Source of the DNA: Branchiostoma floridae
Taxonomy: Eukaryota; Chordata; Leptocardii; Amphioxiformes; Branchiostomatidae
Reading direction: 5' to 3'
NCBI RefSeq assembly: GCF_000003815.2
Contig: NC_049981.1
Coordinates: forward strand, 32,315,712 to 32,379,711
DNA: 64,000 bases
This document shows positions 2,098 through 32,138 of the stretch, piece by piece (position 1 is the first letter of the stretch; each line of letters opens with the position of its first letter). Under the pieces are notes generated by a model, which worked only from the letters and a program-made list of their open reading frames with translations, was not told the DNA's origin and made no database searches. Made by a program: the position numbers and the translations under genes.

Positions 2098-5000
2098 ATG
2101 GAAACAGGTGAGTCACAGTCTTCATATTCACTTAAAAGTCACTATTAGATGCAGATAGCCATTATGACTTTATAAATAAGATATGTAACTTCATCCTAAA
2201 GGTCCGGTCTATTTTAGTTCAGTAATCGTACTATTTTGACTCATGATAAGCCGCTGTGTTGTGCAATACTTTCTCGTTCACTTCAAACCTCACCTTTATT
2301 CTAGTTTACCGAGCGCTTTGAGCTTTGTTACTGTTGCACATAATGATTAATAATAGATAATGATAATCAACACCCTAATCTATGAAATGACCAAAAGGAT
2401 TCCAACGTATAAAATGCGAACAAATAAAACAACTATATTTAACATTGTGAACATGTTGTTCCCTACCAGGTCCTTGTGTTGTCCTCCTGCACGCAGCAGA
2501 GGATGGGGAGTTCGTCAGGAGGCTGGTGAAGGAGCTGATGGGTCTGAGCGCAGGTTACAGACTACCCCAGACAGACATCTCCTGTCAGCAGGTCACAGGC
2601 ACTCCTGGTGACGTCAGCCGCGCACAGCTCACGTCCACGCTGACCCTCGGCAGCGTGAAACTTGTCGTGCCCGTGATCAGCAGACACCTGCTTGCTGACC
2701 AGTCCTCGCTCACGGTCGGACTGGAAACTGCCGTGAGGAACAACAAGCATCGATACGTCATTTGGCTGGACCAGAACCAGGATGACTTCCGTGAGTTCGT
2801 CACGTTAGTCAGCCGGCAGTACCAAACCCTGGAGGCACCGACCAGGCGGGTCCATCGGGACAGGGTTGAGGAGACGATGCCCGGCAGTTGTGTCAGAGGG
2901 ATGTTAGGCATCGCCTGGGATGTGCGTGACGCGCTCTGCAGACAAACAGGTGAGGGTGGACATATCTTGGCTGTTACATAATGCAATCATCGGTTTGTGG
3001 AAATAAGGAACAATCTCGTCAAGTCTGTCGTATAACTTAATTATTTTCATCTTATATCACTATACGTGGAAAAACGGCTTCTTAACCGAAATGTGATCTG
3101 CAGTGATAACCCCTTTGCTCTGATTGAAGGCTAACAACAGAATTACATGTGTTCCTGTGTAATGGATGCTACGGTTGTTTCGTTTACAGAAATTCAGTAT
3201 TGTCGTGAATGCATTTCTTTGTCGTAGTGAGTTATCTAGACACTTCATCAACTAATATGATGTCTCGACAAAGTCCGAACCCCGATAGACTGACGTGTGC
3301 CGTTTGTCTGCCCATCTCCACAGGTGAACCGAGGTTCCCGTGCCAGGAGGCCTTGCTCTTCACTTGTGAGTTCCTGGCTGACAACATGAACCTCCCAGCT
3401 GTTATCACACGGCTGGAACAGGAGAACCAGCTGAGTCCGGCTGAGGTCCGGTATATCCAGGTAAGGTACAGGGTGGAAGCGACAATTGTCAGAGTCTGGA
3501 TAACAACATCACTGCCACATGTAATTCACATTCAAACAGTTTATAGGCTTTGTATACGTCTGCCTTGATCTGCATTTACCACAATGGTTACTACATGGGC
3601 CGCAGCAGCACACACTTAGATGCGTTTCTTTCGGAGTCACCCGCTTCACATTCATACAGTTTTATTGGTTTTCAATATGCCTGTGCTAATCTGTATTTAA
3701 CAACATTTTCACTACATGGGCCGTGGCAGCAGCACACACTTCTGGCTCTAAATTTCTTTCGGAGCCGCCCAATAGCGCCATAGACTTTGCGATATGTTTT
3801 TACAATAAAAGTGCGATAAGTTTCTAAAACAAAACGGCGTTAACTAAAAACAAAAGTCAATATGAAGTTTCATTATACGTTCTGAGCTAGACTACACCTG
3901 CAGAGTTATGTGCTGTTGTTCGTCGGTAGACCTAAGGGCCATTTGCAATAATAAGTCTATAAAGTATATGGTTTAACAAGTAAAGATATCGTCAGCAAAC
4001 ACCATGAATGATGACTGACAAATACAGGGTCAGTAATCACACCATTTTAATTGTTACTCTGAAAGTGAAAGTGTTTCAACTTTGCGCAATAAGCAACGAC
4101 GTTAAAAGTTGCACAAATATTAAATGTAATTTTCATCAGCGCTGTCAGGTGTCGCTTATTGTAGGTACAAAACTGCGCTCCAGCACATTACTTCTTTGCC
4201 GGCACTTTTAAAAAATTTATACAAGTCATGTACTAAGATTGGAATCTGATATTAACATATATTGCCGACATACGCAGTATATCCTGGAAAAACGTGCGAC
4301 AGAATGAGCCATACATGCAGGTTGTTGTATACTATAGCGCCCTGTACGTGTCGATTAGCAATGATCAATATGACTATATGGTGATTTATTTTGTGTTGAT
4401 GTGCAATTACTTTCATTTGATATAACTAATTGTGAGGACTACCCCTTGCGTGGTTTTTGTTTCTTCTGATTTATTTATTTATTTGAAAAATTGTTATAAT
4501 TTCCACATAAGTTCATGTCCTTGTCAAGTTTTATGTTTTCACTTTTGTTCATGAAGTTTAATATAACTATGATTTTGGTTCTTATATTGATTACATTTTC
4601 ATCTCATTTTAACTGATGTACAATTGGTGGCTTTGTTTTATTGATTTCATTTGTAACTTGTGTCTAGTTATTTATGATTTTATTGTTTTGTTGAGTGTAT
4701 TTCTATGTCTATGTTACATTGCTGTGGCCCATTGGTGGCAGAAAGCAAATAAAGATCACTACTTAGACAGCTCTAAAAAAATATAAATTTTATTTGAGGA
4801 TGCCTATTGTAATTTTGTACCTGTACGTTAGCATATATGTATGCGCCTACCTAGTTCCTGCTCTTTATTCACTGATCGAAACCACAGATAAAGCATAAAG
4901 TTATGCAACAGCTGTTACTGTGAACTCAAAAGTCATACAATATATAGTTGTGAGCTCACACCACCCCTGCCGTGTTCCCTCCCCAGGCGGAGCCGACACC

Positions 5001-8000
5001 AGTAAGCAGGGGGGAGCGGTTGGTATGGATGCTGCATAACAGGAGTCGTCAGGAGCCGTACGACTGGTTAGTGCGGGTCCTGCGGGAGGAAGGACAGGAC
5101 TTCCTGGTGGAGGAGATGGTGGAACAGGAGCGGCTCTTGGAGCGAAACTTCGGCATCGGGGAACAGCTGGCGGCACAACCTGGTCAACAAACGACACAGA
5201 AGGAACATTTCTCACAGCAAACTCAAGGTCGATATAGTAATAGCATAATTTCATCCCGCAAACCTTTATACCGCAAATACACAGTTTTAATGTCTATAAT
5301 TTCAAAGTAGAGGTCTAGTTTAGCTTCGTACGTTAAACAAAAAATACGGTGTTTGATCATGGCTCGAACTTCTATTTGTTAGGAGCCGTAATCATTGTAT
5401 TAGCAAGTTCGCAAGTTAGTGTGTTTGTTTATCAATATTAATATTGTTTTTTCATATGTCTGGAAGTCTCCCTTTCGTACTTTTTAAAGCGAAACTTGAC
5501 GCGAACAGTAATTTCATTTCTGCTTACATTATGTCTCACGCCTTAGATTTCCTTCACTAATCTTGATTACCTGCTTTGGCGGATTCCAAGAAACAATACG
5601 GAATAGAAAGCCCGATAAAAACGACTAAAAAGCGCAAAAAAACAGCCGGAGCCTAGTAACCTCTACTTGGAGAGTAACCGTTTCTGCTGAAGTGTGATAC
5701 ACTTGTATATATAGTATGCTTTCGTCTGTACTTATCGTACTTTATGTGTCCCTTTCTAAACCAGTAGCAATACAAAACCATCTACGTCATCCCGGCCCGC
5801 ATGCGCACACACCCCCCACAACACCTTCCGAAATCAAGTGTGTGATTCTGGGACAGACGGAGGCAGGGAAGACCAGTCTGCTCAACTGTATGATGAAGGG
5901 TCAAGGTCATGTGGAGATTGAAATTGACAGAACCATCGGTGTTGACGTCATCACTTACCATGACACCAAGAATAACGTCAAGTACGAGATGTACGACTTC
6001 GGAGGTCACCAGATCTACCACTACACGCACCGGTTCTTCCTGACACGTCAGGCCCTGCACATTCTCAATGTAGACCTGTCATTATACAAGTCAGAAGAGT
6101 TCCAGGAACGAGTGGGAACGTGGCTAACATCCGTGACTTCCCACGTTTTCAACCCGGCTATCCTTGTTGTAGGTACCAAAGTCGACCTGTTCCCGCCAGA
6201 CAAGGCCGAGGAGATGATAGCAGCAGCTTGTTTCTCCATCCAGAGAGACATCCAGGTCGCTGAGAGTAAAATGCAAACCAAGCTGAACGAAGACATACAA
6301 CTCTGTCAGATGGCATCGGGCGGCAAATCAGACCTGACCGGACCTTTCTACGGTCTCACAAGAGACGACATCTTGGCCAAGAAAGAGTCACTGGAGAAGT
6401 TACTTGACGGACGACCCAAAGGTCTGTTAAACGTACAGGTTATCCCGGTCAGCAGCAAGACGTTCCAGGGTATCGAAGCTCTGTGTGACAAGATGGCAGA
6501 AATGGTGAAGGACGAGCGATTGTTCCCTGCTGCCCGCCAAGAGCTGCCGACTTCATGGACGGAACTGTCAGAAAACATCAAGACTTCAGGACGGCCGTAC
6601 CTTCATGTCAGGGATTGTCAGGACGTCGGAGCAGCTGCAGGGATGAAGGAGTCAGACGTCCTGAACGCGCTCAGCTATCTGCACGTGACCGGACAGATCC
6701 TGTTCTACAATCACATCAGGGGGATGGAAGATCTGGTCTTCCCGGACCCAACCATCATCCTCACACTCTTCAAGCAGATCTTCAGGCATGACCTACCGGC
6801 ATATCTGGACAGCAAAGCCGAGTCTCTGTTTGAGCATACCAGAGCGCAGTTTGCTGAAGACAGGGCGTCCTTCCTGAAGACGGGCAGGGCAAGCGACAGT
6901 TTCATGAAGAAGCTGCTTGGAGACAACATTGCCACCTTCAACAGTCTCCTTCCCCTGATGAAGCACTTCGGCCTGTGTTACTCAGGGTCGGTGATCTTTC
7001 TAACAGAGCTTCCTGATGCCCAGCCTGGCGAGGTGGCGCGCTGCTGGCCAGAGGTTGTGCCATCAGGCGGAGAGGAGATCTCTGTTACTATAGAGTACAG
7101 CCAAGAGCCTCCTCTGGGTTTACCGGAAACCATGGTCTCCCGTATCCTGTCCATGGAGCAGACCACACGCCGTCTCCTCACCAAGGACACAGTTGTCGTT
7201 CATGTTAGAGAGAACTCAGAAGACGTCATGTACCGCCATTTCTCTACAAGAGAAGAAATCCGAATCCGGGGAGAGCCAGAGAAGGCGTGGCGCCAGGCTC
7301 AGACGGTAGCGAAGGTGATGGAGGCCTGTTGGGACGAGTTTCCTGCCTTGTACTTCAGTAACAGTGTTGGAAGCGGACAAACAACAAAGTCGCTCACTAT
7401 AGAGGCTGTGAGGCGTCACGTGCCGGGCGACTTGTTGAGGATGTCTAAAGGAAACTGGGAACGGCCACTCGATATTCCTGACGTCAGAACGTCGGAGGAC
7501 GTCTTTGGCAAATATTTTATCGGTACGTACGAAATGCAATTATTTCTTTTGTAAGAAATTAAACTTCTAGTCGTAGTTACACGTAAGGAAAGGATGGTAT
7601 AGAAAGATACTGGGTAGTAAAAACCAAGGACGCTTTATAATGCTAAACAACACATTTGACATATATGGTTGATTAATTTTACCTTAAAGACCAATTTCCC
7701 ATTGAATTTAAATGTTTCATTCATATTTACTTTGAAAAATACACCTGTTCCCCTCCAATGACTAAATCAGGGAAATTATCTGACTGAATTGTACCGTCCT
7801 TTAATTAATTAACCTAATTATAACATTTTTGGGCAATATTGTACATATTTCAGTATATTAATAAAATTGATATCCGGACCCTTCCTCTCCAGACAACCAG
7901 CTGTACCAGGTCAGCAGGGCTGTTGATGGGGAGTACCAGCTGTGGACCCGGCTGGGACAGGAGCTGGAGCTGAACAGGGCTGTACTGGACAACATTAGAG

Positions 8001-11000
8001 GTTATAATGACACCCAGAAGGCGTTCCAGATGCTGAAGGCGTGGCGCACCAAGACCCCCCACGGACCGCTCCACTACCTGCCGCGGCTGGAGGAAACACT
8101 GCAGAACATGGGCAAACCGGACCTGGCTGCAGCTGTACAGGGGGTATATAAGGTTCGTTAATGAGCTTCGATTTACATGTAGGTCTACTCCTATATACAA
8201 GGTGAGTTAATGAAGTCTGATTTAGATACATTTACTAGGTGATGCAACAAGCTCTAGCCATATGCACGGCTCAATCTTTTTGAATGATTAAATATTTTAA
8301 AGTTGCAACAGATTACAGCGCATCAAGCACTTAAAAAGAGGCAACTTACTTGTTTGTCTATATGAAACAATGGCTACAAAAAACTCTATGTAGACATTGT
8401 GGTTTATTTATTGAACTTACGTTTACCCTATATATAGGGTGCCTTAAATGATGTGCCAAAAACAGTTTCATGAGGTCATGTCCATGTAATATAAAACAGT
8501 AAACGTTCTATCTGTTCTATCCAGGAGTACCGTGATGCCTTGCCGTTACAAGAGGTCAGTCCTGAGATGACCGGAGACACACAGTGGTGAGTAGCCATGT
8601 CGAAGTGGTCCCAGCCATAACCTCGCAGTTTTTTGTAAGACAGTACTACTGATATACTTTGTCAGGCAAGTATGGAAGAATGAACAATAGTTGCCTACAT
8701 GTGTTTATCTCCTCAGGTCCCTCCGCCTGCCAGGTGAAAGGAAGTACCTGTGCAGACGGACCGACCTGGGCGTGGTGACGTCCTACCCGCTGTGTCACAC
8801 CTGTATGTTTGAACACCTGCCTACAATACCTGTGTTTATCTCCTCAGGTCCCTCCGCCTGCCAGGTGAAGGGAAGTACCTGTGCAGACGGACCGACCTGG
8901 GCGTGGTGACGCCCTACCCGCTGCACGTGACCTACAGGAGTGCGAACTGGTCCGACAACTGGCAGCAGGTGGGGGAATGGATGCCGGTGGGTCCGCTCTT
9001 CTCCATCCAGTGTGAGGACGTGGAGGGGTCGGTGGACATCCTACTGCCGCACGTGCTGTGCCTGGCTGATGCAACTGGTATGGAAAATTGAAGCTAAAAA
9101 TTCAATTGTTCAATTTATGAATCTTTAATACAATGCCACTTTGTTCAAAACGGTCATCACGGTCCCTTACATTCTTTAAAGATCTCACCACAGCTATGTT
9201 CCTATTGTATAGCTGTACCTCTTTTACATATTAAAATCACGTGAAGATGTCAGTATGATATACATTGTCTTCACATGTTTTTTTCCCAGAACTCACCACA
9301 GGAGACATCCAAGTCGTGCACGTGGTGGGAGATTCCCCCGAGCTGCTGCCGGTTACAGAACTCACCCCCTCCCACGCGGTGACCAGGTTCAAGAAAGGCA
9401 GTCTGTTTGGGGTGGTGGGGAGGACAGACAAGGTATTGAGCATCACCAGAAGAGGCTTGCTGGCAGCCTTTGCCTGTGTGGACGACTCCGACATTTCCAA
9501 GCTGAAAGTTTATATCGTCTCCAACACAAGGACCATGCAAGAGGTCAGGATATTGGTGATGATTATTTTACACTTTCACATTTTCTAATTCTATATCCTA
9601 GATTTGTATGCTTCGTGTTCTGAAACCGTATTGCTGTTTTTTCCATCATCACCAAAACAGACCTTGGAGAAGGACGAAAATAAGCGGAACTTTGCGCTCT
9701 GTGACTTCACGACCTGCCATCTGTATCCAGGCGTTGTCTATCATCTTGAGGGAAGCGTTACAAACGGCAGAGACACGTTTGTGTCTTCATCTCCACAGGT
9801 TTGTTTTATATGCTGTCAACACAAGGCCGTTTACAATCAAAAGAGTTGTTGGAAAACAAAGACACAGACATATTTCGAAGACAAGCGTGTGCCTGTGCGG
9901 AATTAAAACGTAAAATGTAAAACGTTTATTGATTTCTCCACATTAGCATCTACCTATTTCATTTCTTTGACTTGCAGTGTCTCCTATTTGAGGACACGTT
10001 CGACACGAACAAATTCTACAAGCCGTTCCGGGTGGAAGTTACGTCCGACATCTGGAATAGCAGCACCACCTCGCGACTAAGCCTGGAACTGCTTAAGGAA
10101 GCCCAAAATGGTGCAAAGGATCCTGTTGCAGATTTAACCCTGGGTAAGTTAAATTTTTCAAGAACAAAAATATCGCATTTATAGAAATGTAAAAAAAAAA
10201 CTTTATCATGTTATAAAAATTGGACAGATATCTTATGCAACTTATCAACATTGGTCAACTTAAGGATTCAGAAAAGGTTCTGAGCGTTCAGCTAAATGAT
10301 TTCGGTCATGCTGCTTTCTAAAGTTGATCATTCACCCCTATTCACGGCTCTCATATTCCTCCCAGGCCACTACAAGCAAGGCAACACTGCCGAAGGTGTT
10401 GACAGCGGTCTTTCCACACCCACGGAGCTGGTGGAGTCTGTGAGGCGAGGATTGGAATCTTCAAACATTGCAGGTATTGTCTATTTTTTTACGTTTTCAC
10501 GTATTGATTGTGTAATCATTTTTTTATATTTTCCAAGGTAAGCACTTGACAATAGCAATAAGCTAGTTGTTCAGCCTTGGCTGTTCAGTGTAATTTTAAC
10601 TAAACGAACGAACAAATAAATAAATAAATCAAACATTGTTTAAATAATGGCAATAATGGTGAACTACAATGGTGACTGGTGAATCAAATGCCTTTCTAAT
10701 TTCGCTATCCAATATTTGTAGCAAAGGAGTAGTTGTGGTATAAGGCATGGGCTTCCATAAGACCAACAGTTCTTGTTAATTATTTGTCCTTTAAAGTGCG
10801 CCCTGATCTTTTTGTGTCATATTATGTCAGAGGGCCGATTTAAGTATGGCCAACATGCATTTGTGTGATACTGAGAACACTTAAATTGTTTTCAAGGCAA
10901 AGTTTCGGTCCTGTTGGTTGGATATGAATTCAGCACATCAAAGGGCGGAATCTCCACCATCAACCGCCAGGTGGCGCACATGATCACCGCCGCGGGTGCC

Positions 11001-12337: not shown

Positions 12338-12376
12338 GGTTCTGACGGCAATATGGCGTCTATGTCATGTAGTGTA

Positions 12377-12382
12377 AATAAA
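12377..12382 (+). terminator. Polyadenylation signal, copy A
   Basis: AATAAA lies 40 bp after the stop codon, followed by a G/T-rich stretch (GTGGTTTGACAGTGGGTTG). It is conserved at 32178-32183 in copy B. Confidence 0.75.
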
Positions 12383-14649: not shown

Positions 14650-14994
14650 GTTCCTGTGTTTAAGGGATGGACTAATTGTAACGTTATATCCAGATCATGT
14701 GTTAAGAGATGGACTAATTGTAACGTTATATCTAGTTCCTGTGTTTAAGGGATGGACTAATTGTAACGTTATATCCAGATCATGTGTTAAGAGATGGACT
14801 AATTGTAACGTTATATCTAGTTCCTGTGTTTAAGGGATGGACTAATTGTAACGTTATATCCAGATCATGTGTTAAGAGATGGACTAATTGTAACGTTATA
14901 TCTAGTTCCTGTGTTTAAGGGATGGACAAATTGTAACGTTATATCCAGATCCTGTGTTAAGAGATGGACTAATTGTAACGTTATATCTAGTTCT
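14650..14994. repeat. Minisatellite, 8 units of about 43 bp in alternating variants
   Basis: GATGGACTAATTGTAACGTT recurs eight times. Two variant spacers alternate (ATCCAGATCATGTGTTAAGA and ATCTAGTTCCTGTGTTTAAG), so the true period is an 85-86-bp dimer repeated about four times. It lies just beyond the duplicated unit A and is absent from the unit B edge. No protein-coding role is supported. Confidence 0.95.
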
Positions 14995-15649
14995 ACAGTG
15001 TAGTGCTCCAACGGTTGTTTTTAGGCCATGGCCGAAGGATTGACGTCACAGGTACGATTTTATTTTCGTTTCCTGGCTGCAATCGTCGCTTCAAACTGTG
15101 GAAATGTCACGTCATCATTTACTACTTAAACCTGACGGGAAACACTGAGAGAAACTGGCTCCTCTGAGAGGGTTTAAAACATTCAGAGTTCTATGTTACT
15201 GGGTATAAATGCATCTATATAAGTATACATAGCGACTGAGCTGCTTTGGTATAGAATCCCTTCGGTTCAGTTTGTGAGATTTTTAAAACTGTTTCCACGC
15301 TGAACATATCCGAAGTGTGTTGCCGCTTGTAGAGGTAGACTATATTCTGTAAAGTCATCACGTTTGGAAGAAATGTGATCACCCCCATGGAAGCAGAGAT
15401 GGAATCGCCCTGACACGTGTACCAAAAATTTGGAATTAAACTTCCGTTAACAACGCCACGGCAGCAGTGTTTGGGTTGGATGTGTTTGTACGTGTGTATG
15501 TAAAATATGTGTGCGTTTATGGCAAAACGAAAGGGGTCAGAAAAATGCATGAACTGCTCACCAAAAATGTGCCTATGTTGTACAAAAGCAGAACTGTTAA
15601 TAAAAAGAAAAGATGCACCGATATTAAATTATGATGATGTTAAATGACC

Positions 15650-21300: not shown

Positions 21301-24300
21301 CTTTCTTTCTCCTGTCAAATCTTCAGAACACGGTATCTCCCTTGTTCGTCAACCGAATGACTTGAAATTTGGCACAAGGGTAGAGTGGGCCAATACCCTC
21401 GGACAATTTTTTCATTTTTTCCATATCTGTCTCTTAAATGATTTTATTAGGGTTTTTTGGTCATCTTAAGACCAAAACTGTATATTTGGGCCCCCTGTAC
21501 CCTGGTATTATAACCGAATGAGCTGAAATTTGGTACAGATGTGCCTTGATAAGTCCCCCATATAGATTCAATATCAGTTTTGGTGTACAGTATAACGAAA
21601 TACTTATTTTTGCGATTTTTTGGTCATTCTTTTTTACCAAAAAGGGACACTTTTGGCTCCTGTACCTTGGTTTTAGAACCGGATGACCTGAAATTTAGTA
21701 TAGGAGTGCCCTAGACATATGCGCACATGGATTCAATAACACTTGAGGCATACGGTACAATAAAATGCTCAATTTTGCGATTATTTGGCCATTTTATGAC
21801 CAAAAAGTACACTTTTGGCTCTTGTGCTCTGGTTTTAAAACCAAATGACCTAAATTTTGGTAAAAGGGTGCACTAGATATTTATTCAAATGACACATGTA
21901 TAATTTTTGTCATAGACTACGTCAAAATGATATATTTGGGGATTTTTTTGTCATTTTCCAATAGCCAGAGGGGTCAATGACCTTAAGGTCGTTGACCCCC
22001 AGCTGCAGATTGCACCTACTGGCATATATGTCTATTTAATCTAATTAGATAGGTAACCAATCACTTAGCCTGAATCTATATCCTAAAGAGGGGGGGTGGC
22101 AGCCAATCAACGAGCCCGGTGTTATCTGGAAGAGTCCATTCTTACACGGAGGGGTTCATTTTTTTTTAAATTCATCATTGGACTGGTGAAGTCTTTTAGT
22201 GGATGCATTTTTGGACAGGTCTATTTTGCAATTTTACAGAATGTGTGCTGGAAGAGTCTATTCTCGCACGGAGGGGGGATTTTTCAAAATTCATATTTTG
22301 GACTTTGGTGACTTCTAGTTTGTCAAAGTCTTTCAGTAGGGTTATTTTTGGACTGGTCTAATTTGCAATTTTACATGGGTGTTCTGGAAGAGTCCATTCT
22401 TGCATAGAGGGGGCATTTTTAAAAAATCCATTTTTTGGACTTCAGTGATTATGTCAAAGTCCTATTTTAGCGGATATATTTTTGGACTGCTCTACTTTAC
22501 ACGGAAGGGGGATTTTTTCAAATTCAGTTTTGAACGGGTGATGATTCAAAATTCAATTTTAGTGGAAGTGTTTTTAGACTGGTCTATTATACCTTTTTAT
22601 GCACTGGGACCTTTTTTGCTAAATTCAATTTTGGATTTGGTTTCTTATTCAAAAGGCCAAGGTTTCAGTGGGAGTATTTCTGGACTGGTCTATTGTGCAA
22701 ATTCACATAGGGTGCACTGGAGTCCATTCTTGAACTTGTAAGACTCATTTTTTGGGTTAAACCGTCATTAGTAAAAGTGATTTTTCAAATGAGTGATTTT
22801 GAAATAGCCTATTGTTGCATGGGGAGGGAGATGGCTGAAATATGCTTTATTTGCTCTCAAGCAAATGTCGGCCTTTCTAGTTTGTCATAGTTTTCGGTCG
22901 TGGCTTCTCTAAAATCCGTATTTATATCCATCCTATATATATACTCACAAGTCACCAGAGAATCGCACACTTGGCTGTTTTACAAGGAAACTTTAACGGC
23001 TGGGATAATTTACGTTGGGTAGTCCTCTTTGATATTTGATTGATAAATTTGCTTTCAGCATGTTATCTCCGCGTACATTTCTTTGTCACTTGTTACACAT
23101 TACCAATACTTCTCTTCTACTTTCATACAGGGCGTATCATCTTAAATATGTTTTAAAAAGGTTATTTTACACTGTCCAAACGTCACAGCCAATAGCGTGA
23201 TCTCTACAGTAACATAGTTTATATAACCTTTTCCGCATTAGTCATCCTGAAGAAACATCTAAGTCATCCCGGTGCGCATGTGGATGACGTCACAACACCT
23301 TCCGAAGTCAAGTGTGTGATTCTGGGACAGACGGAGGCAGGGAAGACCAGTCTGCTCAACTGTATGATAAGGGGTCAAGGTCACGTAGAGAGTGAAACTG
23401 ACAGAACCATCGGTGTTGACATCATCACTTACGATGACAACAAGAATAACGTCAAGTACAAGATGTACGACTTCGGAGGTCACCAGATCTACCACTACAC
23501 GCACCGGTTCTTCCTGACACGTCAGGCCCTGCACATCCTCAATGTAGACCTGCCAGGATACAAGTCAGAAGAGTTCCAGGAACGAGTGGGAACGTGGCTA
23601 ACATCCGTGACTTCTCACGTGTTCAACCCGGCTATCCTTGTTGTAGGAACCAAAGTCGACCTGTTCCCGCCAGACAAGGCCGAGGAGATGATAGCAGCAG
23701 CTTGTTCCTCCATCCAGAGAGACATCCAGGTCGCTGAGAGTAAAATACAAACCAAGCTAAATGAAGAGATTCAACTCTGTCAGAAGGCGGTGGATGCAGC
23801 GAACGGCAAATCAGACCTGGCCGGACCTTTCTACGGTCTCACAAGAGACGACATCTTGGCCAAGAAAGAGTCACTGGAGAAGTTACTTGACGGACGACCC
23901 AACGGTCTGTCAAACGTACAGGTTATCCCGGTCAGCAGCAAGACGTTCCAGGGTATCGAAGCTCTGTGCGACAAGATGGCAGAAATGGTGAAGGACGAGC
24001 GATTGTTCCCTGCTGCCCGCCAAAAGCTGCCGACTTCCTGGACGAAACTGTCAGAAAACATCAAGACTTCAGGACGGCCGTACCTTCATGTCAGGGGTTG
24101 TCAGGACGTCGGAGCAGCTGCAGGGATGAAGGAGTCAGACGTCCTGAACGCGCTCATCTATCTGCACGTGACCGGACAGATCCTGTTCTACAACCACATC
24201 AGGGGGATGGAAGATCTGGTCTTCCCGGACCCAACCATCATCCTCACACTCTTCAAGCAGATCTTCAGACATGACCTACCGGCATATCTGGACAGCAAAG

Positions 24301-27300
24301 CTGAGTCTCTCTCTGAACATACCAGAGTGCAGTTTGCTAAAGACAGGGCGTCTTTCCTGAAGACGGGAAGGGCAAGCGACAGTTTCATGAAGAACCTGCT
24401 TGGAGACAACATTGCCACCTTCAACAGTCTCCTTCCCCTGATGAAGCACTTCGGCCTGTGTTACTCAGGGTCGGTGATCTTTCCAACAGAGCTTCCTGCC
24501 GCCCAGCCTGACGAGGTGGCGCGCTGCTGGTCAGAGCTTGTGCCATCAGGCGGAGAGGAGATCTCTCTTATTATAGAGTACAGCCAAGAGCCTCCTCTGG
24601 GTCTAACGGAAACGATGGTCTCCCGTATTCTGTCTATGGAGCAGACTACACGCCGTCTCCTCACCAAGGACACAGTTGTCGTTCATGTTGGAGAGAACTC
24701 AGAAGACGTGATGTACCGCCATTTCTCTACAAGAGAAGAAATCCGGATCCGGGGAGAGCCGGAGAAGGCGTGGCGCCAGGCTCAGACGGTAGCGAAGGTG
24801 ATGGAGGCCTGTTGGGACGAGTTTCCTGCCTTGTACTTCAGTAACAGTGTTGGAAGCGGAGTAACAACAAAGTCACTCACTATAGAGGCTGTGAGGCGTC
24901 ACGCGCCGGGTGACTTGTTGAGAATGTCTGAAGGAAACTGGGAACGGCCACTCGATATTCCTGACGTCAGAACGTCGGAGAACGTCTTTGGCAAGTACTT
25001 CATCGGTAAGAAATAAAGTTTTAAATTGTAGATACAAGTAAGCAAAGCTTTCACTTTCACTTTATTTGTAAAAGCAGAGTATAGATTGATCGGAAAAAAT
25101 AACATATTTGACATAAATTATTCCTTACTTTAAACAGCAACTTTCCATTTTGATGTTTCATTAATATCAGCTTTACAAATACCCTTGTTCACCTCCAATG
25201 ATTGAAACATGGAAATTATCTCGTTGCATTTTATGGCTCTTTAATCAACTTGGTTATAACACTAATTGGGGAACAATGTACATGTTAACCAGTTAACATT
25301 TCTTTAGAAATGTACCTTTGTTAATGCTTCACTTGTAAAACAGAAATATACACACCTAGCAAAGGAAGACTTTTTAAAAATCCAGTGTCATCAGCTAACC
25401 ACGATGTAAGTTCGTCTTCACATCTTTTAAGAAGATGGGAAAAGCATGCAATAATATGGTAGGACATAGAATAGTTAACGAGTACCTAGCATTCTCTTTG
25501 TATGGAACGTACTGTATTTAGTCCTAACGGGGCATGGATATGCAATAAACTTCATTGCCATTTAGTATATTCATAAAAGTTATTCTTTTTCTGTCCAGAC
25601 AACCGGTTGTACCAGATCAGCAGGGCTGTTGGTGAGGAGTGGCAGCTGTGGACCCGGCTGGGACAGGAGCTGGGACTGAACAGGGCCGTGCTGGACAACA
25701 TTAGATTTTATAATGAAACCCAGAAGGCGTTCCAGATGCTGAAGGCGTGGCGCACCAAGACCCCCCACGGACCGCTCCACTACCTGCCGCAGCTGGAGAA
25801 AACACTGCAGAACATGGGCAAACCGGACCTGGCTGCAGATGTACAGGGGATGTATAAGGTGAATTATCATAAACTTTATGAATTAAGTATAACTTCTGTT
25901 CCCTATCACTGTAACAGGAATAGGGTTAAGGTGCCATTGACCGTATTTCCATAACCGATTGGGCGATAGCAATTTATCTGAATGATGTTGTTAGAAATGA
26001 TGATGAAAAAATTTTCCAAAAGCAAACGTCACGGACAGGAGTGACGTCATTGATAGCCATTCCCTTCGGTGGAGCTCGAATGAAATGTTGTTTGCTCTTG
26101 AAATGTCTTAAGTTTGTGTAACGTATATTTAGGATATCACACCTCTTATTTCATTAATAAGGTTATTAGTACTGTACATAGATATTCATATATATTCAAG
26201 TATGATCCTCTTGGACTTACTACTGATCACATACTTGTTCATGTATATGATCAGCTTCACCTATATCCCATATATACAGGACTACCGCGAAGCCTTGCGG
26301 TCACAAGAAATCAGTCCTGAGATGACCGGAGACACCGAATGGTGAGTAGGCATTGTATTGTCTTGGTGTTGTTTTTTTCAAATGTAAGTCCAGGACTGCC
26401 TGAAAAGCAGGCCAAGCTTCGACCTGAGTGTACTCTCCTGGTAAAACAAATGAAGTGAAAGTGAAAACATTTCAATATGACTGTACAAGACCCTGCAGCA
26501 ATGAAGTCAGTGGTAATCTATTTACACTGCTTTTTACAGAACTAATTACAGAACCCATTGGTGATATTCAAGTAAACGTAGATACATGTAATCGTAAGCG
26601 TCTGCAGGCTTGGCGCTCAATGCAATAGAGAGAGACCTAGACAGTTAGTGTTGCATCTGTATGAGTGAGAAAGCATCGTTGCCATCTGTCATACACTACT
26701 GGAGAGTTCGAGCATATAAACGTCTGTGTGTATCTCCTTGGGACCCTCCGCCCTCTAGATGAAGGGAAGTGCCTGTGCAGGCCTGTATGTTTGAACACTT
26801 GGCTACAATACCTGTGTTTATTTCTTCAGGTCCCTCCGCCTGCCAGGTGAAGGGAAGTACCTGTGCAGACGGACCGACCTGGGCGTTGTGACGCCCTAGC
26901 CGCTGTGTCACACCTGTATGTTTGAACACCTGGCTACAATACCTGTGTTTATCTCCTCAGGTCCCTCCGCCTGCCAGGTGAAGGGAAGTACCTGTGCAGA
27001 CGGACCGACCTGGGCGTGGTGACGCCCTACCCGCTGTGTAACACCTGTATGTTTGAACACCTGGCTACAATACCTGTGTTTATCTCCTCAGGTCCCTCCG
27101 CCTGCCAGGTGAAGGGAAGTACCTGTGCAGACGGACCGACCTGGGCGTGGTGACGCCCTACCCGCTGTGTAACACCTGTATGTTTGAACACCTGGCTACA
27201 ATACCTGTGTTTATCTCCTCAGGTCCCTCCGCCTGCCAGGTGAAGGGAAGTACCTGTGCAGACGGACCGACCTGGGCGTGGTGACGCCCTACCCGCTGCA

Positions 27301-30300
27301 CGTGACCTACAGGAGTGCGAACTGGTCCGACAACTGGCAGCAGGTGGGGGAATGGATGCCGGTGGGTCCGCTCTTCTCCATCCAGTGTGAGGGCGTGGAG
27401 GGGCCGATGGAAATCCTACTGCCGCACGTGCTGTGCCTGGCTGATGCAACAGGTAAGGGAAAATGGAAGCTAAAAATCCAATTCCTCAATTTGTTTCTTT
27501 CATAAAACGTCGCTTGTATCAAAACCGCCATCACGATTTCTTACATTTTTCTCCAGAACTCACCACAGAAGACCTCCAAGTCGTGCACGTGGTGGGAGAT
27601 TCCCCCGAGCTGCTACCGGTTACAGAACTCACCCCCTCGCACGCGGTGACCAGGTTCAAGAAAGGCAGCCTTTTCGGGGTGGTGGGAAGGACAGAGAAAG
27701 TCCTGGGCATCTCCAGGAACGGACTGTTGACGGCATTTGCTTGCCAGGACGACTCCGACATTTCTATGTTGAAAGTTTACATCGTCTCCAATACAAGGAT
27801 CATGAAAGAGGTAGGGGCTAACATAGATTATACACTTGTATGTATCACATCCTTGCTATTTGGCATTCAGTCAATAATTTCAAAGCAACTGTACATTTTT
27901 TCTCACTTCATAACAGTTCCTTACTTTATATAAACAACAACTGTGCCACTCATATAGACCCTTGCGGAGGACGAAGAGAAGCTGAATTTCTCACTGTGCG
28001 ACTACAAGACCTGCCAGCTGTATCCAGGTGATACCTACTATCTTGAAGGGAGCGTTACAAACGGCAGAGACACGTTTGTATCCTCATCGCCGGAGGTTTG
28101 TTTTCTGTTTTAGCGACCTAACACTTGTTGTCTTAACTGCTGTATCCATAACAATGGTCCTTGACTATATATCTGCTACACAGCGTGAATACATCCAAGG
28201 AAGTAATTAAACAGGTAAATTAAAAAAAAAATTCTGCAAATGCATTGAAGTTCGAGTGATTTCGCGGTAGTGGGAAAATGGAGTGTTGAAAACGGTTGTA
28301 GTAGCGTCATCCCGCAGACTAAAATGCATTTACAGCACGTAACTATACTGCAACTGTACTATACTGTTGTCACTTACTGTCATGGAAAGCCCTGCGCCTC
28401 TACGAAGCGTTAGTCTGAAACTACTTACTGGTTACTCGGCAATGATGCTGGAATGGACTGAACAGTCCAATTTGTACTTTAGCAGTGCTGGCGTAATTAA
28501 CCGTCATTGAGTCAACCGCATCTACCCTCTGAATACGTAATACAAAACTACTTTTCTGCCATTGTGTTATATAGTAGCTCATATCGAGAAATTAATGAAC
28601 TAAAAAAAAGTGTTGTAAGTATTCTTGTGTCCTCGCCGTGACGAGCACCCCAATTTCATTCTTATGATACTGTGACAATGTTTAATACGTGCAAGGGATG
28701 CCGTAGGCGGCGTGAGCAGAAGACTGCCCGCGATGGTTTTAAGTTCGCGGTGAAGCGATCACCTCGGAACATAAAACATAAAACCACCGCGAAAGTTTGT
28801 GTATTAATATTATTCATTTTGAAAAGGGGTCGTCTTGAAATTTGTTTCAGTGTCTCATGTTCGAAGACACGTTCGACACTAACAAATTCTACGAACCGTT
28901 CCGGGTGGAAGTTAGTGCCGACATCTGGAACAGCAGCACCACCTCGCGACTAAACCTAGAACTGCTGGAGAAGAGCAAGGATGGTTCAAAGGAATTCATC
29001 TCAGGACTGACGCTGGGTAAGTTCGTACGTATCACAAAATGTTGACATCAAACAAAATAAGATCTTTCTTAAATCTCACCATTTAATGAGTTGAGATCTT
29101 ATCTCTTTTAAACTGCTGAAAATTTGGCAATGAAATTTTTTCGAGGTCAAGTACCTAAAACATAGAAGAAGTTTTCCATGCACCAATTAAGGCGCCTACA
29201 CAAATTAGTTCCGCATTTCTTTGTCCTCGAAAAACGTCTCCAACAATTAGGTAATGACAGCAGAGAACAGAAAGCGATAAGAAGTGATAAACACTTAGCA
29301 GTTATCAAAGCTCAATGAATCGTTGCACAAAATGCCCTTCTCCTTATAAAGGTCGCCACAAGCAAAGCTTCACGGCTGAAGGGTCTGACAGTGGCCATTC
29401 GACACCCACTCAGCAGGGAGAGTCTATGGGGAGACAGCCGGATTCAACAAGGATTTCAGGTGATCCCCTTTGTTTGTATTAAGACCAGGCGAACGGCTGT
29501 TTCCACAATTTGCATTTCTCTCAAAGTCCAAGCAGAGGTCTAATGGGCAGATTGTTACATTATTTCGTCGACCGTCAGAAAGCGACCAGTAGAGCAAAAA
29601 CAAACAAAACCACCTTCCTTCCAGCCTCAGCTTTGAGAGTCGAAAGTAAATGTGGGTGCTCACCAGTAGTCCTCGGAACGAACTAATGCAACTGTAGCAA
29701 TCAGAGATATGACATTTTATATTTGTACATTTGATAAAAAGTTTTCCTCGAGCGATAAGCTTTTAAACGCAAAAAGTTACAAACTGAGGCAAAACGATAA
29801 ATCAGTTGATTTAACTGAAGGGACCACCTACAAGATTTTTTTTAGATAAATGAATAAAATGTTAAAAGATAATCATCAAACCAGCAGGCAGACGTACATC
29901 GAGGGGTGATCATGAGATAGATGCTGCAGGTCCATCTGATGATCCAGACAGCGGCCGTGCCGCAGAGCCTGCCGCTCACTCCAGCAGGAAGAGGAAGTCC
30001 AGCCGGACGCCGGAGAAAGGTGAGAACATCGATAACCAAAGCGATTCACCTAAGTTAGAGAGCTTTGATGTTTGCCTGAAGGTAAAGATAGTACCCTTAT
30101 AGCCTGTAGCTAGTTCCTCCTTGTAGTTACATTTAAGGCATACGCGTGTGGCTTCATGACTATAACCTAGTGCGAACGAAACACAAATATGTATAGTAAA
30201 ACAGTGTATGTAAATGCTCGTTTTCTTTTGTCTTTGACAGGCAAGAAGTCAAAAGGTGGAGACCTAAGAGGCACAGACGTGCCATCTAAGAAAAGGAAAG

Positions 30301-32138
30301 AGGAAAGTTCAACTGGTGAGAGTTTGGAAGGAATTTCTCGGAAATCACTGAAGATTTCCCTTCCCTCCACAATTTATGGACAAAATATTTGACAATCAGG
30401 AGCGACCGTTCGGAAAAATATAATACACATAAAGCGACGTTACGGTAGTAATTGCAGCACTCAAACTTTGACTTATATTGCAATGTATACTCGGAATGTA
30501 TGGTTATACACAAAATTATGATATACTATTTGACGTATACCTTTCCATTTTCTTGGAGTCTTTTTATAGACACAGTTCTATGAAATTCCGCTGTGTCATG
30601 GTTTCTAGTTTTGTCTGCAATAGAGAAAACTGAAGAAATTGAGATGGCAAGAACTGTGTTTTCATTTTAAGTTCATCTGCGATTTCTATTCCAGCCAGAG
30701 TTTCAGTCCTGTTAATTAGTCAAGAATACTGCACGTCGAAGGGCGGAATCTCCACCATCAACCTGAGTGTCGCGCGTATGATCGCCGCTGCAGGTGCCGA
30801 GGTCTACGCTACCGTGTTGGAGGCAAGTGAACAAGACGAGAGGGATGCAGAACGAGACGGAGTGAAACTCCTCAAGCCGCGTCTTGATCCCGACAGCAGC
30901 GCGAAGCCGTCCTTAGAGTGGCTGACTGTGTACCACAAACATCACTTTCCACACATCCCATCAGATGTCTGCTGCATTGTGGGCCATGTTGACGTCACAA
31001 GCAGAGCAGCCAGGAAGATCAAAGAGGAGCGATTTCCACACGCCAAGCTCGCCATGTTTGGTCACGTGGCGCCAGAGGAGACAGAGCACTACAAGAGTGA
31101 CGAGAAGGCCCTGGGTGTGGGGAAGAAGGAAGCCAGCATCCAGGACGACATTGGCAAGGCTGATGTCGTCTTCTCGGTTGGACCGCGCATTCACCGCCAT
31201 TACGACAGGTTCCTCCGTCAGCGTCACGTGACTCACCACATCTTCCTACCTGAACCTTTAAAGATCTTCCGCGATGCAAACGTGATCTTTGGTGAAAGCG
31301 ACGACGTTAAGAAGCCAGAGAGAGTAGTTCTGTCCATCGGCAGGGTGCGGAATGTGGAGAGGCTGAAAGGTCACGACCTGGCCGCAGGATCCATAGACAA
31401 GGCGGCACAGCGGCTTGACAATCAGTACACACTGAGGCTGAGAGTCCGCGGCATCGATGAGAACGACTTCAAGGATAGCAAGAGAATCCTGGAGGAGAAA
31501 CTGAGATCCGGCCGGGTCAAACCCACCCTGCTTCCGTACGGCACTCAAGAGGAGATCCGCCGAGACATGGAGGTCTGTCACCTGGTCCTGATGCCGTCCC
31601 GGGCCGAACCGTTCGGACTGGTCGGCCTGGAGGCCATCGCGGCAGGAGTTCCCGTCCTCATCTCAGAGCACTCGGGCCTTGCAGAGCTGATAGAGGAGCT
31701 ATCAGACAGGCTGGGACAGCCCAAGTTCCGCCACTGCATCGTCAAGATGACGGGAGACACCGCGACCGACTCTGATGTAGAGAAGTGGGCAGAAAGAATC
31801 GAGGACGTCCTCAAGAACGCCAGGTCAGAGTTCGCGGAAGCCCGCGCCTTCAGGGAGAAACTGCTGGCCTCCAAGTACTGGGAAGAATCTCACCAGACGT
31901 TTCTACATGCCTGTGGCATCACTGGTAAGAAACCTTGGTCATGTCTTGATATACCTTGACAGATAAATAGTTTGTGAATCTATGGACAAACTCGTCAATG
32001 TTTCCATCATGCTTATACTGTTTTATGTTATTTCATAACAATATTGTTCTTGGCTCATCGTTTGAACTCGTGTACTTCACAGCCACCCCCAGTGCCCAAG
32101 CGGAGGGTGAAGATGCTGAAGCCGATGACCCCAACTGA
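18333..32138 (+). CDS. TIR-CARD-Roc-COR-Death-ZU5-UPA-glycosyltransferase protein, copy B
   Basis: The model has 16 exons: 18333-18342, 18703-19191, 19585-19721, 20892-21147, 23242-25005, 25599-25858, 26280-26341, 27223-27452, 27557-27810, 27958-28095, 28851-29016, 29352-29459, 29921-30019, 30241-30315, 30695-31924, 32083-32138. They total 5334 nt (1777 aa) with consistent phases and GT-AG junctions. Eleven of the 14 shared exons have exactly the copy A length. The other three differ by +9 (TIR), +15 (CARD tail) and +6 nt (Roc-COR), all in frame, so both paralogues appear under coding constraint. Copy B alone carries two basic linker exons before the glycosyltransferase. The product has the same module order as copy A. 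Nothing here shows whether the two are co-expressed. Confidence 0.85.
18703..19191 (+). CDS. Copy B exon 2: TIR-like domain
   Basis: Encodes about residues 4-167: RVVVLYAAEDGEFVKRL, then LVVPVISRHLLADQSSL, G-L-E-T-A-V with Glu90 in the expected TIR-NADase catalytic position, and YVIWLDQNKDDF. It is 9 nt longer than copy A, through an extra residue near YEPSYS and two near R-D-S-P-R. The strand/loop core is nearly unchanged, which argues against relaxed selection. Confidence 0.65.
19585..21147 (+). CDS. Copy B exons 3-4: CARD domain
   Basis: Exons 19585-19721 and 20892-21147 encode residues 167-298. The helix pattern matches copy A (EFLADNMNLSAVLTRLEQEN / RGERLVNMLQYN / YDWLVRVLREEGQDFLVEEM). 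After the last helix, copy B has an in-frame 15-bp tandem duplication giving a repeated R-V-W-E motif (about 21036-21065), extending a charged helix or linker. The CARD is split by an intron at the same site as in copy A. Confidence 0.75.
19841..20053. mobile_element. MITE with TTCGCGGTGG-type repeats, copy B intron 3
   Basis: The ends are imperfect inverted repeats (TAAATGCATTTAAGTTCGCGG left; complement of CCGCGAACATTTCTGCATTT right), with further internal GCGGT/ACCGC inversions. Copy A lacks it at the paralogous position. Related fragments occur in copy B intron 10 (28233-28336 and 28733-28800). Confidence 0.65.
21286..21311. repeat. (CTTT)n microsatellite
   Basis: About six tandem CTTT units in copy B intron 4, absent from copy A. 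Confidence 0.9.
21325..22790. repeat. Two degenerate tandem-repeat arrays in copy B intron 4
   Basis: From 21325 to about 21960, units of roughly 110-150 bp recur with the cores ACCGAATGACTTGAAATTTGG and TTTTGGTCAT..GACCAAAA. From about 22120 to 22760, a different unit recurs (GGAAGAGTCCATTCTTACAC, TTTTTGGACTGGTCTATTTT). The remainder to 23241 has no recognised feature. Copy A intron 4 is only 0.54 kb, so this 2.1-kb intron expanded after duplication. The open frame over 22379-22741 is repeat-derived, not a gene. Confidence 0.7.
23242..25005 (+). CDS. Copy B exon 5: Roc-COR GTPase module
   Basis: A 1764-nt phase 1-1 exon encoding residues 298-886. All GTPase motifs are retained (GQTEAGKTS, RTIGVDI, DFGGH, TKVD, PVSSK) and the COR segment is almost identical to copy A. 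The true acceptor is TTTTCCGCATTAG at 23229-23241, which keeps phase with the CARD exon; the apparent GTG start at 23280 is internal. Roc-COR acts as a GTP-regulated dimer in known ROCO proteins. Confidence 0.88.
25599..25858 (+). CDS. Copy B exon 6: Death domain
   Basis: Encodes residues 886-972 with the W-x-x-L-G-x-x-L core (LWTRLGQELGLN), LDNIRFYN, QKAFQMLKAWRTK and a last helix ending in LAADVQGMYK. Length and phases (1 in, 0 out) equal copy A. Joined by the 62-nt exon 26280-26341 to the ZU5 block. Confidence 0.88.
26280..27810 (+). CDS. Copy B exons 7-9: ZU5 subdomain
   Basis: Exons 26280-26341, 27223-27452 and 27557-27810. FIIND-like signatures are kept (GPLFSIQCEGVEG, ILLP-H-V-L-C-L, HAVTRFKKGSLFGVVG, LKVYIVSNT). 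As in copy A, the residue after the candidate scissile Phe is Gly rather than Ser. The intron before exon 8 contains three further acceptor/exon-start units. Confidence 0.75.
26730..27222 (+). repeat. 131-bp tandem array of exon 8 acceptor plus exon start
   Basis: Full units begin their exon-like part at 26830, 26961 and 27092, with the genuine exon at 27223; the spacing is exactly 131 bp each time. A decayed partial unit (acceptor AG lost) lies at about 26730-26815. The units are nearly identical, implying recent expansion or homogenisation. The 26830 unit has a TAG (CCCTAGCCG) in the exon frame. Copy A has just one extra unit. Confidence 0.95.
27958..29016 (+). CDS. Copy B exons 10-11: UPA subdomain
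   Basis: Exons 27958-28095 and 28851-29016, residues 1155-1256. Same strand pattern as copy A (LNFSLCDYKT, LYPGDTYYLEGSV, FEDTFDTNKFYEPFRVEV, SSTTSRLNLELLE). The intervening 755-bp intron contains MITE fragments (28233-28336, 28733-28800) and is much longer than the copy A intron (179 bp). Confidence 0.72.
28233..28800. mobile_element. Fragments of the TTCGCGGT-type MITE, copy B intron 10
   Basis: 28233-28336 has a left end (TGCAAATGCATTGAAGTTCG, TTTCGCGGTAG) and a right end (AAATGCATTTACAG). 28733-28800 has TTTTAAGTTCGCGGTGAAG and CCACCGCGAAAG. These match the element at 19841-20053 and may be one copy disrupted by a later insertion. Confidence 0.5.
29352..30315 (+). CDS. Copy B exons 12-14: linker with copy-specific basic exons
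   Basis: Exon 29352-29459 corresponds to copy A exon 12 (same 108 nt). Exons 29921-30019 and 30241-30315 have no counterpart in the 0.42-kb copy A intron. All three are phase 1-1, so inclusion or skipping keeps frame. The extra exons encode hydrophilic sequence with clusters SSRKRKSSRTPEKG, KKSKGG and PSKKRKEE, resembling mono- or bipartite nuclear localisation signals. Splice sites are GATAG|AT..AAAG|GTGAGA and TTGACAG|GC..CTG|GTGAGA. The exons are inferred from splice sites and phase only. Confidence 0.6.
30695..31924 (+). CDS. Copy B exon 15: GT-B glycosyltransferase (GT4-like)
   Basis: A 1230-nt phase 1-1 exon, identical in length to copy A, residues 1350-1759. It retains VSVLLISQEYCTSKGGISTI at the N-lobe start, VVLSIGRVRNVERLKGHDL, and RAEPFGLVGLEAIAAGVPVL with the E-x7-E pair. 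Most differences from copy A are in the N-lobe; the nucleotide-sugar lobe is nearly unchanged. Confidence 0.82.
32083..32138 (+). CDS. Copy B terminal exon
   Basis: An acidic tail (ATPSAQAEGEDAEADDPN) ending at TGA 32136-32138, after acceptor CTTCACAG. Same length as in copy A. Confidence 0.75.

What the first reader, a model, noticed from the sequence alone, without database searches (positions are those of the whole stretch)
2098..32138. Apparently undescribed fusion: TIR-CARD-Roc-COR-Death-ZU5-UPA-glycosyltransferase
Both tandem copies splice into one open frame joining four signalling domain types, a Roc-COR switch, a FIIND-like ZU5-UPA and a full-length GT4-like glycosyltransferase. Known ROCO proteins carry LRR, ankyrin or kinase partners, and known ZU5-UPA-Death proteins lack Roc-COR and GT. 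An enzymatic GT tail on an immune-type scaffold suggests either a glycan-modifying effector, analogous to effector domains of NLR-like conflict systems, or a glycan/nucleotide-sugar sensor. I recall a glycosyltransferase group 1 domain being reported in coral NLR-like proteins, which should be checked before claiming novelty.
Basis: partly seen in the sequence, partly recalled or inferred. Interest (0 to 1): 0.92.

Follow-up and report, generated by a model that had tools for sequence, protein, structure and literature searches.

The report
Amphioxus immune-type GTPase with glycosyltransferase tail
A cluster of tandem-duplicated genes in a lancelet-like animal appears to encode large proteins that join cell-death signalling domains, a GTPase switch and a sugar-transferring enzyme, and parts of the signalling domains vary sharply from copy to copy while the enzyme stays much the same.

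Summary
Both copies splice into one open frame of 14 exons (1708 and 1719 aa), phases consistent: TIR-CARD-Roc-COR-Death-ZU5/UPA-GT4. The last domain is Pfam GT4-conflict (4e-78). I count 18 related places in 1.4 Mb of the contig; GT4 ends 13, a second Death domain one, four show no GT4 hit. Genome-wide, 20 of 57 GT4 exons have a Roc upstream on the same strand within 20 kb, 0 on the opposite strand. TIR and CARD are divergent but supported; the TIR has Gly at the presumed NADase-glutamate position; the ZU5 keeps His and Ser of self-cleavage but not the Phe.

'Undescribed' is partly right. PMC8195603 (eLife 2021) describes GT4 as an immune effector in corals and lancelets, and bacterial LRR-Roc-COR-GT4. 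This exact order I saw in no held paper; its figures and supplements were out of reach.

New here: single CARD codons, and more weakly TIR and Death codons, carry up to 11 amino acids among 18 copies, while Roc-COR and GT4 are constrained. I read the family as GTPase-gated immune complexes with a constant enzymatic output and copy-specific assembly surfaces. No RNA or functional evidence was available.

The parts
2098..2107 (+). copy 1 exon 1, start codon (MET)
2470..2949 (+). copy 1 exon 2, TIR
3324..3460 (+). copy 1 exon 3, first half of CARD
4987..5227 (+). copy 1 exon 4, second half of CARD
5768..7522 (+). copy 1 exon 5, Roc-COR GTPase
7893..8152 (+). copy 1 exon 6, Death domain
8525..8586 (+). 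copy 1 exon 7, linker
8848..9077 (+). copy 1 exon 8, ZU5 part of FIIND
9290..9543 (+). copy 1 exon 9, end of ZU5 with His and the Gly-Ser at the usual cleavage site
9661..9798 (+). copy 1 exon 10, UPA
9978..10143 (+). copy 1 exon 11, UPA
10366..10473 (+). copy 1 exon 12, linker to GT4
10897..12126 (+). copy 1 exon 13, GT4-conflict glycosyltransferase
12282..12337 (+). copy 1 exon 14, C-terminal tail and stop
18333..18342 (+). copy 2 exon 1, start codon
18703..19191 (+). copy 2 exon 2, TIR
19585..19721 (+). copy 2 exon 3, CARD first half
20892..21147 (+). copy 2 exon 4, CARD second half
23242..25005 (+). copy 2 exon 5, Roc-COR
25599..25858 (+). copy 2 exon 6, Death
26280..26341 (+). copy 2 exon 7, linker
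27223..27452 (+). copy 2 exon 8, ZU5
27557..27810 (+). copy 2 exon 9, end of ZU5
27958..28095 (+). copy 2 exon 10, UPA
28851..29016 (+). copy 2 exon 11, UPA
29352..29459 (+). copy 2 exon 12, linker
30695..31924 (+). copy 2 exon 13, GT4-conflict glycosyltransferase
32083..32138 (+). copy 2 exon 14, tail and stop

Best explanation
Each copy is one gene for an intracellular immune protein of the Roc-COR (AP-GTPase) kind. A GTPase switch (Roc-COR) controls assembly through TIR, CARD and Death domains, a ZU5-UPA (FIIND-like) block holds or relays the active state, and the C-terminal GT4 enzyme is the constant output, transferring a sugar to an invader or host target. The family was amplified in tandem. 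Its assembly domains, chiefly the CARD, have been pushed to differ from copy to copy, so each paralogue probably nucleates its own complex or escapes its own inhibitor, while switch and enzyme stay fixed. Shown: reading frame, order, paralogue conservation, constraint on Roc-COR and GT4, excess amino-acid diversity at some CARD codons. Inferred: single transcript, immunity, GTP-driven assembly, sugar transfer, the target, and the reason for the diversity.
For: One frame with consistent phases in two copies. 18 places in C3:31.88-33.31 Mb; 8 show all six domain hits in the same order, GT4 is at the end in 13 (my tally). 20 of 57 GT4 exons have one of the 59 strongest Roc hits (of 147) upstream on the same strand within 20 kb, 0 of 57 on the opposite strand, 10 of 57 downstream on the same strand (tandem neighbours); 13 of 13 with both Roc and FIIND upstream are in the order Roc-FIIND-GT4. 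No in-frame ATG before the GT4 exon's first codon in either window copy. GT4 and Roc-COR constrained: minimal nonsynonymous/synonymous rate ratio 0.29 and 0.43, copy 1 vs copy 2 dN/dS 0.32 and 0.43. E-x7-E and GR..LKGxD invariant in 12 of 12. Codons with 5 or more amino acids: CARD 15 of 125, TIR 7 of 159, Death 7 of 86, against Roc-COR 4 of 587, GT4 2 of 409, ZU5 0 of 76 and 0 of 84 (sets of 4 to 18 sequences); assembly domains still lead after subsampling seven of the eight sets (all but the second ZU5 exon) to 8 sequences. CARD codons with 8 or more nonsynonymous steps: 4 of 125, about 0.04 expected from the exons' own synonymous rate. Known precedent for the logic: PMC8195603 section 15.
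Against: No RNA, protein or structure evidence; the structure predictor was off. 4 of 18 places show no GT4 hit; their downstream DNA was not read. 32 of 57 GT4 exons have neither Roc nor FIIND upstream. 5 of 20 GT4 loci (L012, L020, L023, L024, L025; three of them in the C3 cluster) do have an in-frame ATG in the frame before GT4. TIR and UPA are below Pfam cut-offs. Against a neutral yardstick Death is below expectation at 4 steps (8 seen, 11.9 expected) and above it only at 6 (5 vs 1.5); TIR is moderate (8 vs 1.7 at 4 steps); CARD at 4 steps is only 15 vs 9.7, its excess lies at 6 (8 vs 0.8) and 8 steps. These are minimum-step counts with a Poisson yardstick, not a codon-model likelihood test; gene conversion between copies is likely. 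Between copies 1 and 2 the ZU5 exon too has dN/dS above 1 (1.33, on very few changes). Variable residues were not placed on a structure.
Confidence: 0.53

Rival explanations
1. Two genes, not one: the GT4 exons, or the TIR-CARD exons, belong to neighbouring transcripts that only happen to be in phase.
For: No transcript data; 32 of 57 GT4 exons of this genome have no Roc or FIIND hit upstream; 5 of 20 GT4 loci have an in-frame ATG before GT4; AATAAA occurs inside both genes.
Against: All junctions in phase in two copies; no in-frame ATG before GT4 in copies 1 and 2, and none in 15 of 20 loci; the linker exon 12 is found within 1.5 kb before GT4 in 6 of 20 loci, 4 besides the window copies, and in copy C and on C17; CARD is recognised only when exons 3 and 4 are joined.
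Confidence: 0.1
2. GT4 is a sugar or nucleotide-sugar sensor, not an enzyme, and the Death/CARD domains are the output.
For: Copy C has a Death domain where others have GT4 (Pfam 1e-11), so the end position can hold a signalling domain.
Against: Donor-site and E-x7-E residues invariant in 12 of 12 GT4 sequences, including relatives at 48% identity; PMC8195603 also reads GT4 as an enzyme acting on invader or host molecules.
Confidence: 0.2
3. The copy-to-copy variation in CARD and TIR is an arms race against pathogen inhibitors of these domains, not a code for paralogue-specific assembly.
For: Equally compatible with the codon pattern; inhibitors of death-fold domains are well known (recalled).
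Against: None direct. Five of the six variable codons of CARD exon 3 are spaced i, i+3, i+4, i+7, i+8 (codons 4, 7, 8, 11, 12), as one helix face would be; either model expects that.
Confidence: 0.4
4. The TIR domain is a NAD-cleaving effector, as in SARM1 or bacterial Thoeris.
For: TIR assignment through relatives.
Against: The position of the presumed catalytic Glu (four after the Trp in the relatives) is Gly in 12 of 12 C3 TIR exons aligned, Glu in 7 of 7 relatives aligned (that this Glu is the catalytic one is recalled).
Confidence: 0.04

Closest known systems
Metazoan GT4 conflict proteins (PMC8195603, eLife 2021; Pfam PF20706 GT4-conflict)
   Same: Same glycosyltransferase family (4e-78), fused to apoptosis/immunity domains, lineage expansion, reported in cephalochordates.
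   Different: Published pattern shared by cephalochordates, hemichordates and cnidarians is GT4-TRADD-N-LRR; here GT4 ends a TIR-CARD-Roc-COR-Death-ZU5-UPA protein. Figure 6A of the paper could not be seen.
Bacterial LRR-AP-GTPase-COR proteins with GT4 effector (PMC8195603 section 15)
   Same: Roc-COR switch with GT4 in the C-terminal effector place; the end domain varies between proteins.
   Different: N-terminal side is TIR-CARD, not LRR; Death and ZU5-UPA lie between. C14 and C8 of this genome hold frames with LRR (by eye) and Roc-COR, and a GT4 exon downstream; whether these are one gene was not tested.
NLRP1 / CARD8 (FIIND) and PIDD (ZU5-UPA-Death)
   Same: ZU5-UPA block with death-fold domains; aligns with CARD8 structure 7jkq (4.6e-7).
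   Different: Death lies before ZU5; Phe of the cleavage site is Gly; no NACHT or LRR hit; Roc-COR and GT4 added. Layouts of NLRP1 and PIDD are recalled.
ROCO proteins (LRRK2, DAPK1, MFHAS1)
   Same: Roc aligns with LRRK2 6xaf (3.5e-14), COR follows.
   Different: No kinase or LRR hit in copy 1; death-fold and GT4 partners.

Membership tests
GT4-conflict (PF20706) | whole-domain profile match over cut-off | tested here: met
   263.5 bits against 26
GT4-conflict (PF20706) | GT-B retaining active site: E-x7-E and donor R/K | tested here: met
   EPFGLVGLE, GR and LKGxD core residues invariant in 12 of 12; roles recalled
GT4-conflict (PF20706) | sugar transfer activity | not testable with these tools
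   needs enzyme assay
ROCO (Roc-COR) | Roc GTPase over cut-off with P-loop | tested here: met
   61.2 bits against 27; GQTEAGKT, DFGGH, TKVD seen in the translation
ROCO (Roc-COR) | COR directly after Roc | tested here: inconclusive
   COR-A 35.5 bits on the exon frame against 35.3 but 32.7 in the whole protein: borderline
FIIND (ZU5-UPA) | ZU5/FIIND profile | tested here: met
   110.6 bits against 25.8
FIIND (ZU5-UPA) | UPA part | tested here: inconclusive
   UPA-FIIND 24.5 bits against 27
FIIND (ZU5-UPA) | self-cleaving Phe-Ser with upstream His | tested here: not met
   His and Ser align with CARD8, Phe is Gly (the CARD8 site is recalled)
CARD | profile match of spliced exons | tested here: met
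   11 of 11 paralogues at E<=1, best 5.7e-7; copy 1 itself below cut-off
TIR | profile match | tested here: inconclusive
   10 of 12 at E<=1, best 0.0082; relatives 8 of 8 over cut-off
TIR NADase | catalytic glutamate | tested here: not met
   Gly in 12 of 12
NLR (NACHT/NB-ARC-LRR) | NACHT or NB-ARC and LRR | tested here: not met
   no such Pfam hit at E<=0.5 in the 1708-aa protein

The most novel reading that the evidence does not exclude
The family is a set of parallel, paralogue-private signalling machines: a constant GTPase switch and a constant sugar-transferring weapon, gated by CARD, TIR and perhaps Death surfaces that have been driven apart by selection so that each copy assembles only with its own kind or reads its own trigger. 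Recognition diversity would then sit in the signalling domains themselves rather than in a repeat sensor such as LRR.
Probability: 0.27. Interest if true: 0.87.

Novelty: new variant of a known kind. Interest (0 to 1): 0.63.

Why it matters
It joins in one chordate protein parts known from bacterial conflict systems (Roc-COR with GT4) and from vertebrate cell-death signalling (CARD, Death, ZU5-UPA), and gives a family of at least 18 places in which to ask what the immune GT4 enzymes modify. The copy-specific residues in CARD name the exact positions to swap in an assembly test.

Tried and rejected
Single-exon CARD, and TIR, in Pfam: no hit over cut-off; CARD resolved by splicing, TIR by relatives. 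TIR profile against PDB: 0 hits at E<=1. CARD profile against PDB: best BCL10 at 0.06, not significant. GT4 profile against PDB: best 2jjm 3.5e-8 and 3mbo 4.1e-8, over about half of the profile. Bacterial relatives of GT4: 7 loci, E 3e-11 to 4e-5, from one scan, not read further. The hhalign comparison is uninformative because both alignments hold the window TIR. Copy F's '1840-aa frame' is a run of N, not a gene. Copies K and L show no GT4 but have it, cut by assembly gaps, so 13 of 18 is a lower bound. One search's neutral counts looked only at codons with 5 or more amino acids and used rough site numbers; one search repeats them over all codons with exact sites and replaces them.

Papers: searches for this domain order were (listings with titles and starts of abstracts, capped, e.g. 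20 of 1,006); none that I saw shows it. PMC8195603: section 15 read whole, passages elsewhere. PMC12314368, PMC2575513 and PMC12373286: passages only. In PMC2575513 'Roc', 'ZU5', 'Glyco' do not occur as whole words. Supplements and figures could not be read.

Rows dropped: one search left out Roc-COR of L066, L072 and copy B, and GT4 of L025 (coverage, N, frame or stop filter). Sets: TIR 12 of the 17 C3 places with a TIR hit; CARD exon 3, 12; CARD exon 4, 18 of 18 hits; Death 16 of the 16 C3 hits; Roc-COR 11; ZU5 8; second ZU5 exon 4; GT4 11, of which two (L015, L021) are C5 copies. One search used 59 of 147 Roc hits (E up to 1.2e-10), 32 of 48 FIIND hits (N-terminal part) and 57 of 57 GT4 hits. 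The lone CARD hit at C3:31886240 was lumped with the place next to it.

Full report
What is there. The window is C3:32315712-32379711 of a 513-Mb animal genome; its size fits Branchiostoma floridae, but that name is my inference. Two tandem copies are present. Each has 14 exons in one frame, 1708 and 1719 aa, with GT..AG introns and matching phases. An AATAAA follows both stops by 40 nt.

Domains. On the spliced copy 1 protein Pfam gives Roc (aa 313-429, 1.4e-16), COR-A (550-695, 8.1e-8, slightly under cut-off; just over it on the exon frame alone), Death (877-957, 8.4e-8), FIIND (977-1104, 5.6e-32), UPA-FIIND (1123-1211, 4.1e-5, under cut-off) and GT4-conflict (1287-1681, 4.1e-78). The N-terminal domains needed more work. 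CARD is split over exons 3 and 4; spliced, 11 of 11 paralogues match Pfam CARD at E<=1, best 5.7e-7, though copy 1 itself stays at 0.02. TIR matches TIR_2 in 10 of 12 paralogues at E<=1, best 0.0082; 8 of 8 more distant genomic relatives are over the TIR_2 cut-off. Seven of these relatives, aligned with the window TIR, have a Glu four residues after a Trp where the window TIR, and all 12 C3 TIR exons aligned, have Gly, so NAD cleavage is unlikely. The ZU5 part aligns with CARD8 (7jkq, 4.6e-7); the His and Ser of self-cleavage are kept, the Phe before the Ser is Gly (the CARD8 site is recalled).

One gene or two. For one gene: phases, the absence of an in-frame ATG before GT4 in both window copies and in 15 of 20 GT4 loci, and the linker exon 12 within 1.5 kb before GT4 in 6 of 20 loci, 4 besides the window copies. 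Against, or neutral: 5 of 20 loci have such an ATG, and AATAAA occurs inside the genes. Of 57 GT4 exons in the genome, 20 have one of the 59 strongest of 147 Roc hits upstream on the same strand within 20 kb; 0 have one on the opposite strand; 10 have one downstream on the same strand, as tandem neighbours would give; 18 have a FIIND upstream; the 13 with both are in the order Roc-FIIND-GT4; 32 have neither. Two of the five 'FIIND without Roc' cases were read further. On C5 (L101) a CARD (3.7e-18), a P-loop frame (Roc 0.0021, under cut-off), COR-A (4.5e-12) and an unassigned domain precede Death; FIIND and GT4 follow. On C17 (L100, L064) TPR repeats lie upstream and a frame that looks by eye like the C5 COR, then Death, ZU5-UPA, linker and GT4. 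So undercounts Roc.

The cluster. Putting together I count 18 places in C3:31.88-33.31 Mb. Eight have all six domain hits (TIR, CARD exon 4, Roc, Death, FIIND, GT4) in order, both window copies among them; five more have GT4 with another hit missing, partial or cut by an assembly gap, making 13 with GT4. One place, copy C (C3:32172623 on), has a second Death domain about 0.2 kb after the linker exon, in the GT4 position (Pfam 1e-11). Four places show no GT4 hit; their downstream DNA was not read.

Sequence diversity. Across paralogues the TIR, CARD and Death exons are nearly invariant except for single codons that differ in many copies (and for Death). Codons with 5 or more amino acids: CARD 15 of 125, TIR 7 of 159, Death 7 of 86, Roc-COR 4 of 587, GT4 2 of 409, ZU5 0 of 76 and 0 of 84. 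One CARD codon shows 11 amino acids in 18 copies. With 8 random sequences per set the share of codons with 4 or more amino acids is CARD 0.14 and 0.10, Death 0.07, TIR 0.05, GT4 0.02, Roc-COR 0.01, ZU5 0. With each exon's own synonymous rate as yardstick, CARD has 8 codons with 6 or more nonsynonymous steps (0.8 expected) and 4 with 8 or more (0.04 expected); TIR has 8 with 4 or more (1.7 expected); Death has 5 with 6 or more (1.5 expected) but 8 with 4 or more (11.9 expected); Roc-COR has 4 with 4 or more (10.9 expected) and GT4 4 (51 expected). The CARD excess is therefore the firm part, TIR moderate, Death weak. In CARD exon 3 five of six variable codons are 4, 7, 8, 11 and 12, the spacing of one helix face. 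This is the part I find most surprising. It is a minimum-step count with a Poisson yardstick; a formal codon model remains to be run.

Copy history. Between copies 1 and 2 synonymous distance is 0.02-0.13 in the exons from TIR to ZU5 except the short linker exon 7 (0.42), and 0.24-0.71 from exon 9 to GT4; the 17-codon tail shows 0. This suggests gene conversion of the front part. dN/dS between the two copies exceeds 1 in both CARD exons (1.66, 1.37) and in ZU5 (1.33, few changes).

How it likely works. From the parts: a trigger reaches the N-terminal or Roc-COR part; GTP switching in Roc-COR allows CARD/TIR/Death assembly; the ZU5-UPA block restrains or relays; GT4, brought together in the complex, transfers sugar to a target. 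Only the parts list and the diversity pattern are shown here; the rest is inference from the named families.

What is known. PMC8195603 (section 15 read whole, passages elsewhere) describes the GT4 domain as a potential effector of bacterial and animal conflict systems, with over 500 paralogues in Acropora digitifera, GT4-TRADD-N proteins in cephalochordates, hemichordates and cnidarians, and bacterial LRR-AP-GTPase-COR proteins with GT4. PMC12314368 (passages) reports coral Glycos_transf_1 proteins with NACHT and LRR. PMC12373286 (passages) reports the Death domain as the most over-represented domain in dispensable genes of two lancelets. This genome itself holds frames with LRR (by eye) and Roc-COR, and GT4 downstream, on C14 and C8. 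So the principle is known; the order TIR-CARD-Roc-COR-Death-ZU5-UPA-GT4 and the hypervariable codons I did not see in print in the searches named, with the reserve that figures and supplements were out of reach.

Verdict. Real, a new variant of a known kind, interest 0.63, raised mainly by the diversity pattern. On checking I lowered confidence slightly, because 5 of 20 GT4 loci do have an in-frame ATG and because Death is not above neutral at the lower threshold.

Noticed in passing
L045:5623-5988 (C3:32184623-32184988): Copy C carries a Death domain (Pfam 1e-11) after the linker exon where other copies have GT4: the C-terminal effector place looks swappable.
   Followed up: partly
window 8696-8830 and 26724-27167; L030:1474-2343; L032:2205-2732: The first part of the ZU5 exon, with its acceptor site, is repeated in tandem in 131-bp units before the exon: one extra unit in copy 1, three and a partial one in copy 2, seven in copy B, four in copy P.
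   Followed up: partly
L034 (C14:1940001-1949000), L033 (C8:12555001-12563500): Open frames with LRR (by eye) and Roc-COR and a GT4 exon downstream, the layout of the bacterial LRR-AP-GTPase-COR-GT4 proteins.
   Followed up: partly
L101 (C5:23958501-23966500), L100 and L064 (C17): Related genes: CARD (3.7e-18) and COR-A (4.5e-12) on C5, TPR repeats on C17, an unassigned domain, then Death and, FIIND and GT4.
   Followed up: partly
L045:1323-3376: Frames that look by eye like a non-LTR reverse transcriptase sit between the two ZU5 exons of copy C.
   Followed up: no
window 37363-45262: Three frames of C2H2-type zinc fingers in 84-nt repeats (by eye, and repeat families D1-D3).
   Followed up: no
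window 14650-15074 and 56662-57235: An 85-bp tandem repeat and a 259-bp direct duplication, unidentified.
   Followed up: no
C5:3573381 and C5:3731361 (L015, L021): GT4 exons 81% identical to copy 1 with no Roc or FIIND hit within 20 kb upstream and no UPA or linker exon in the fetched 1.5-kb flank.
   Followed up: no
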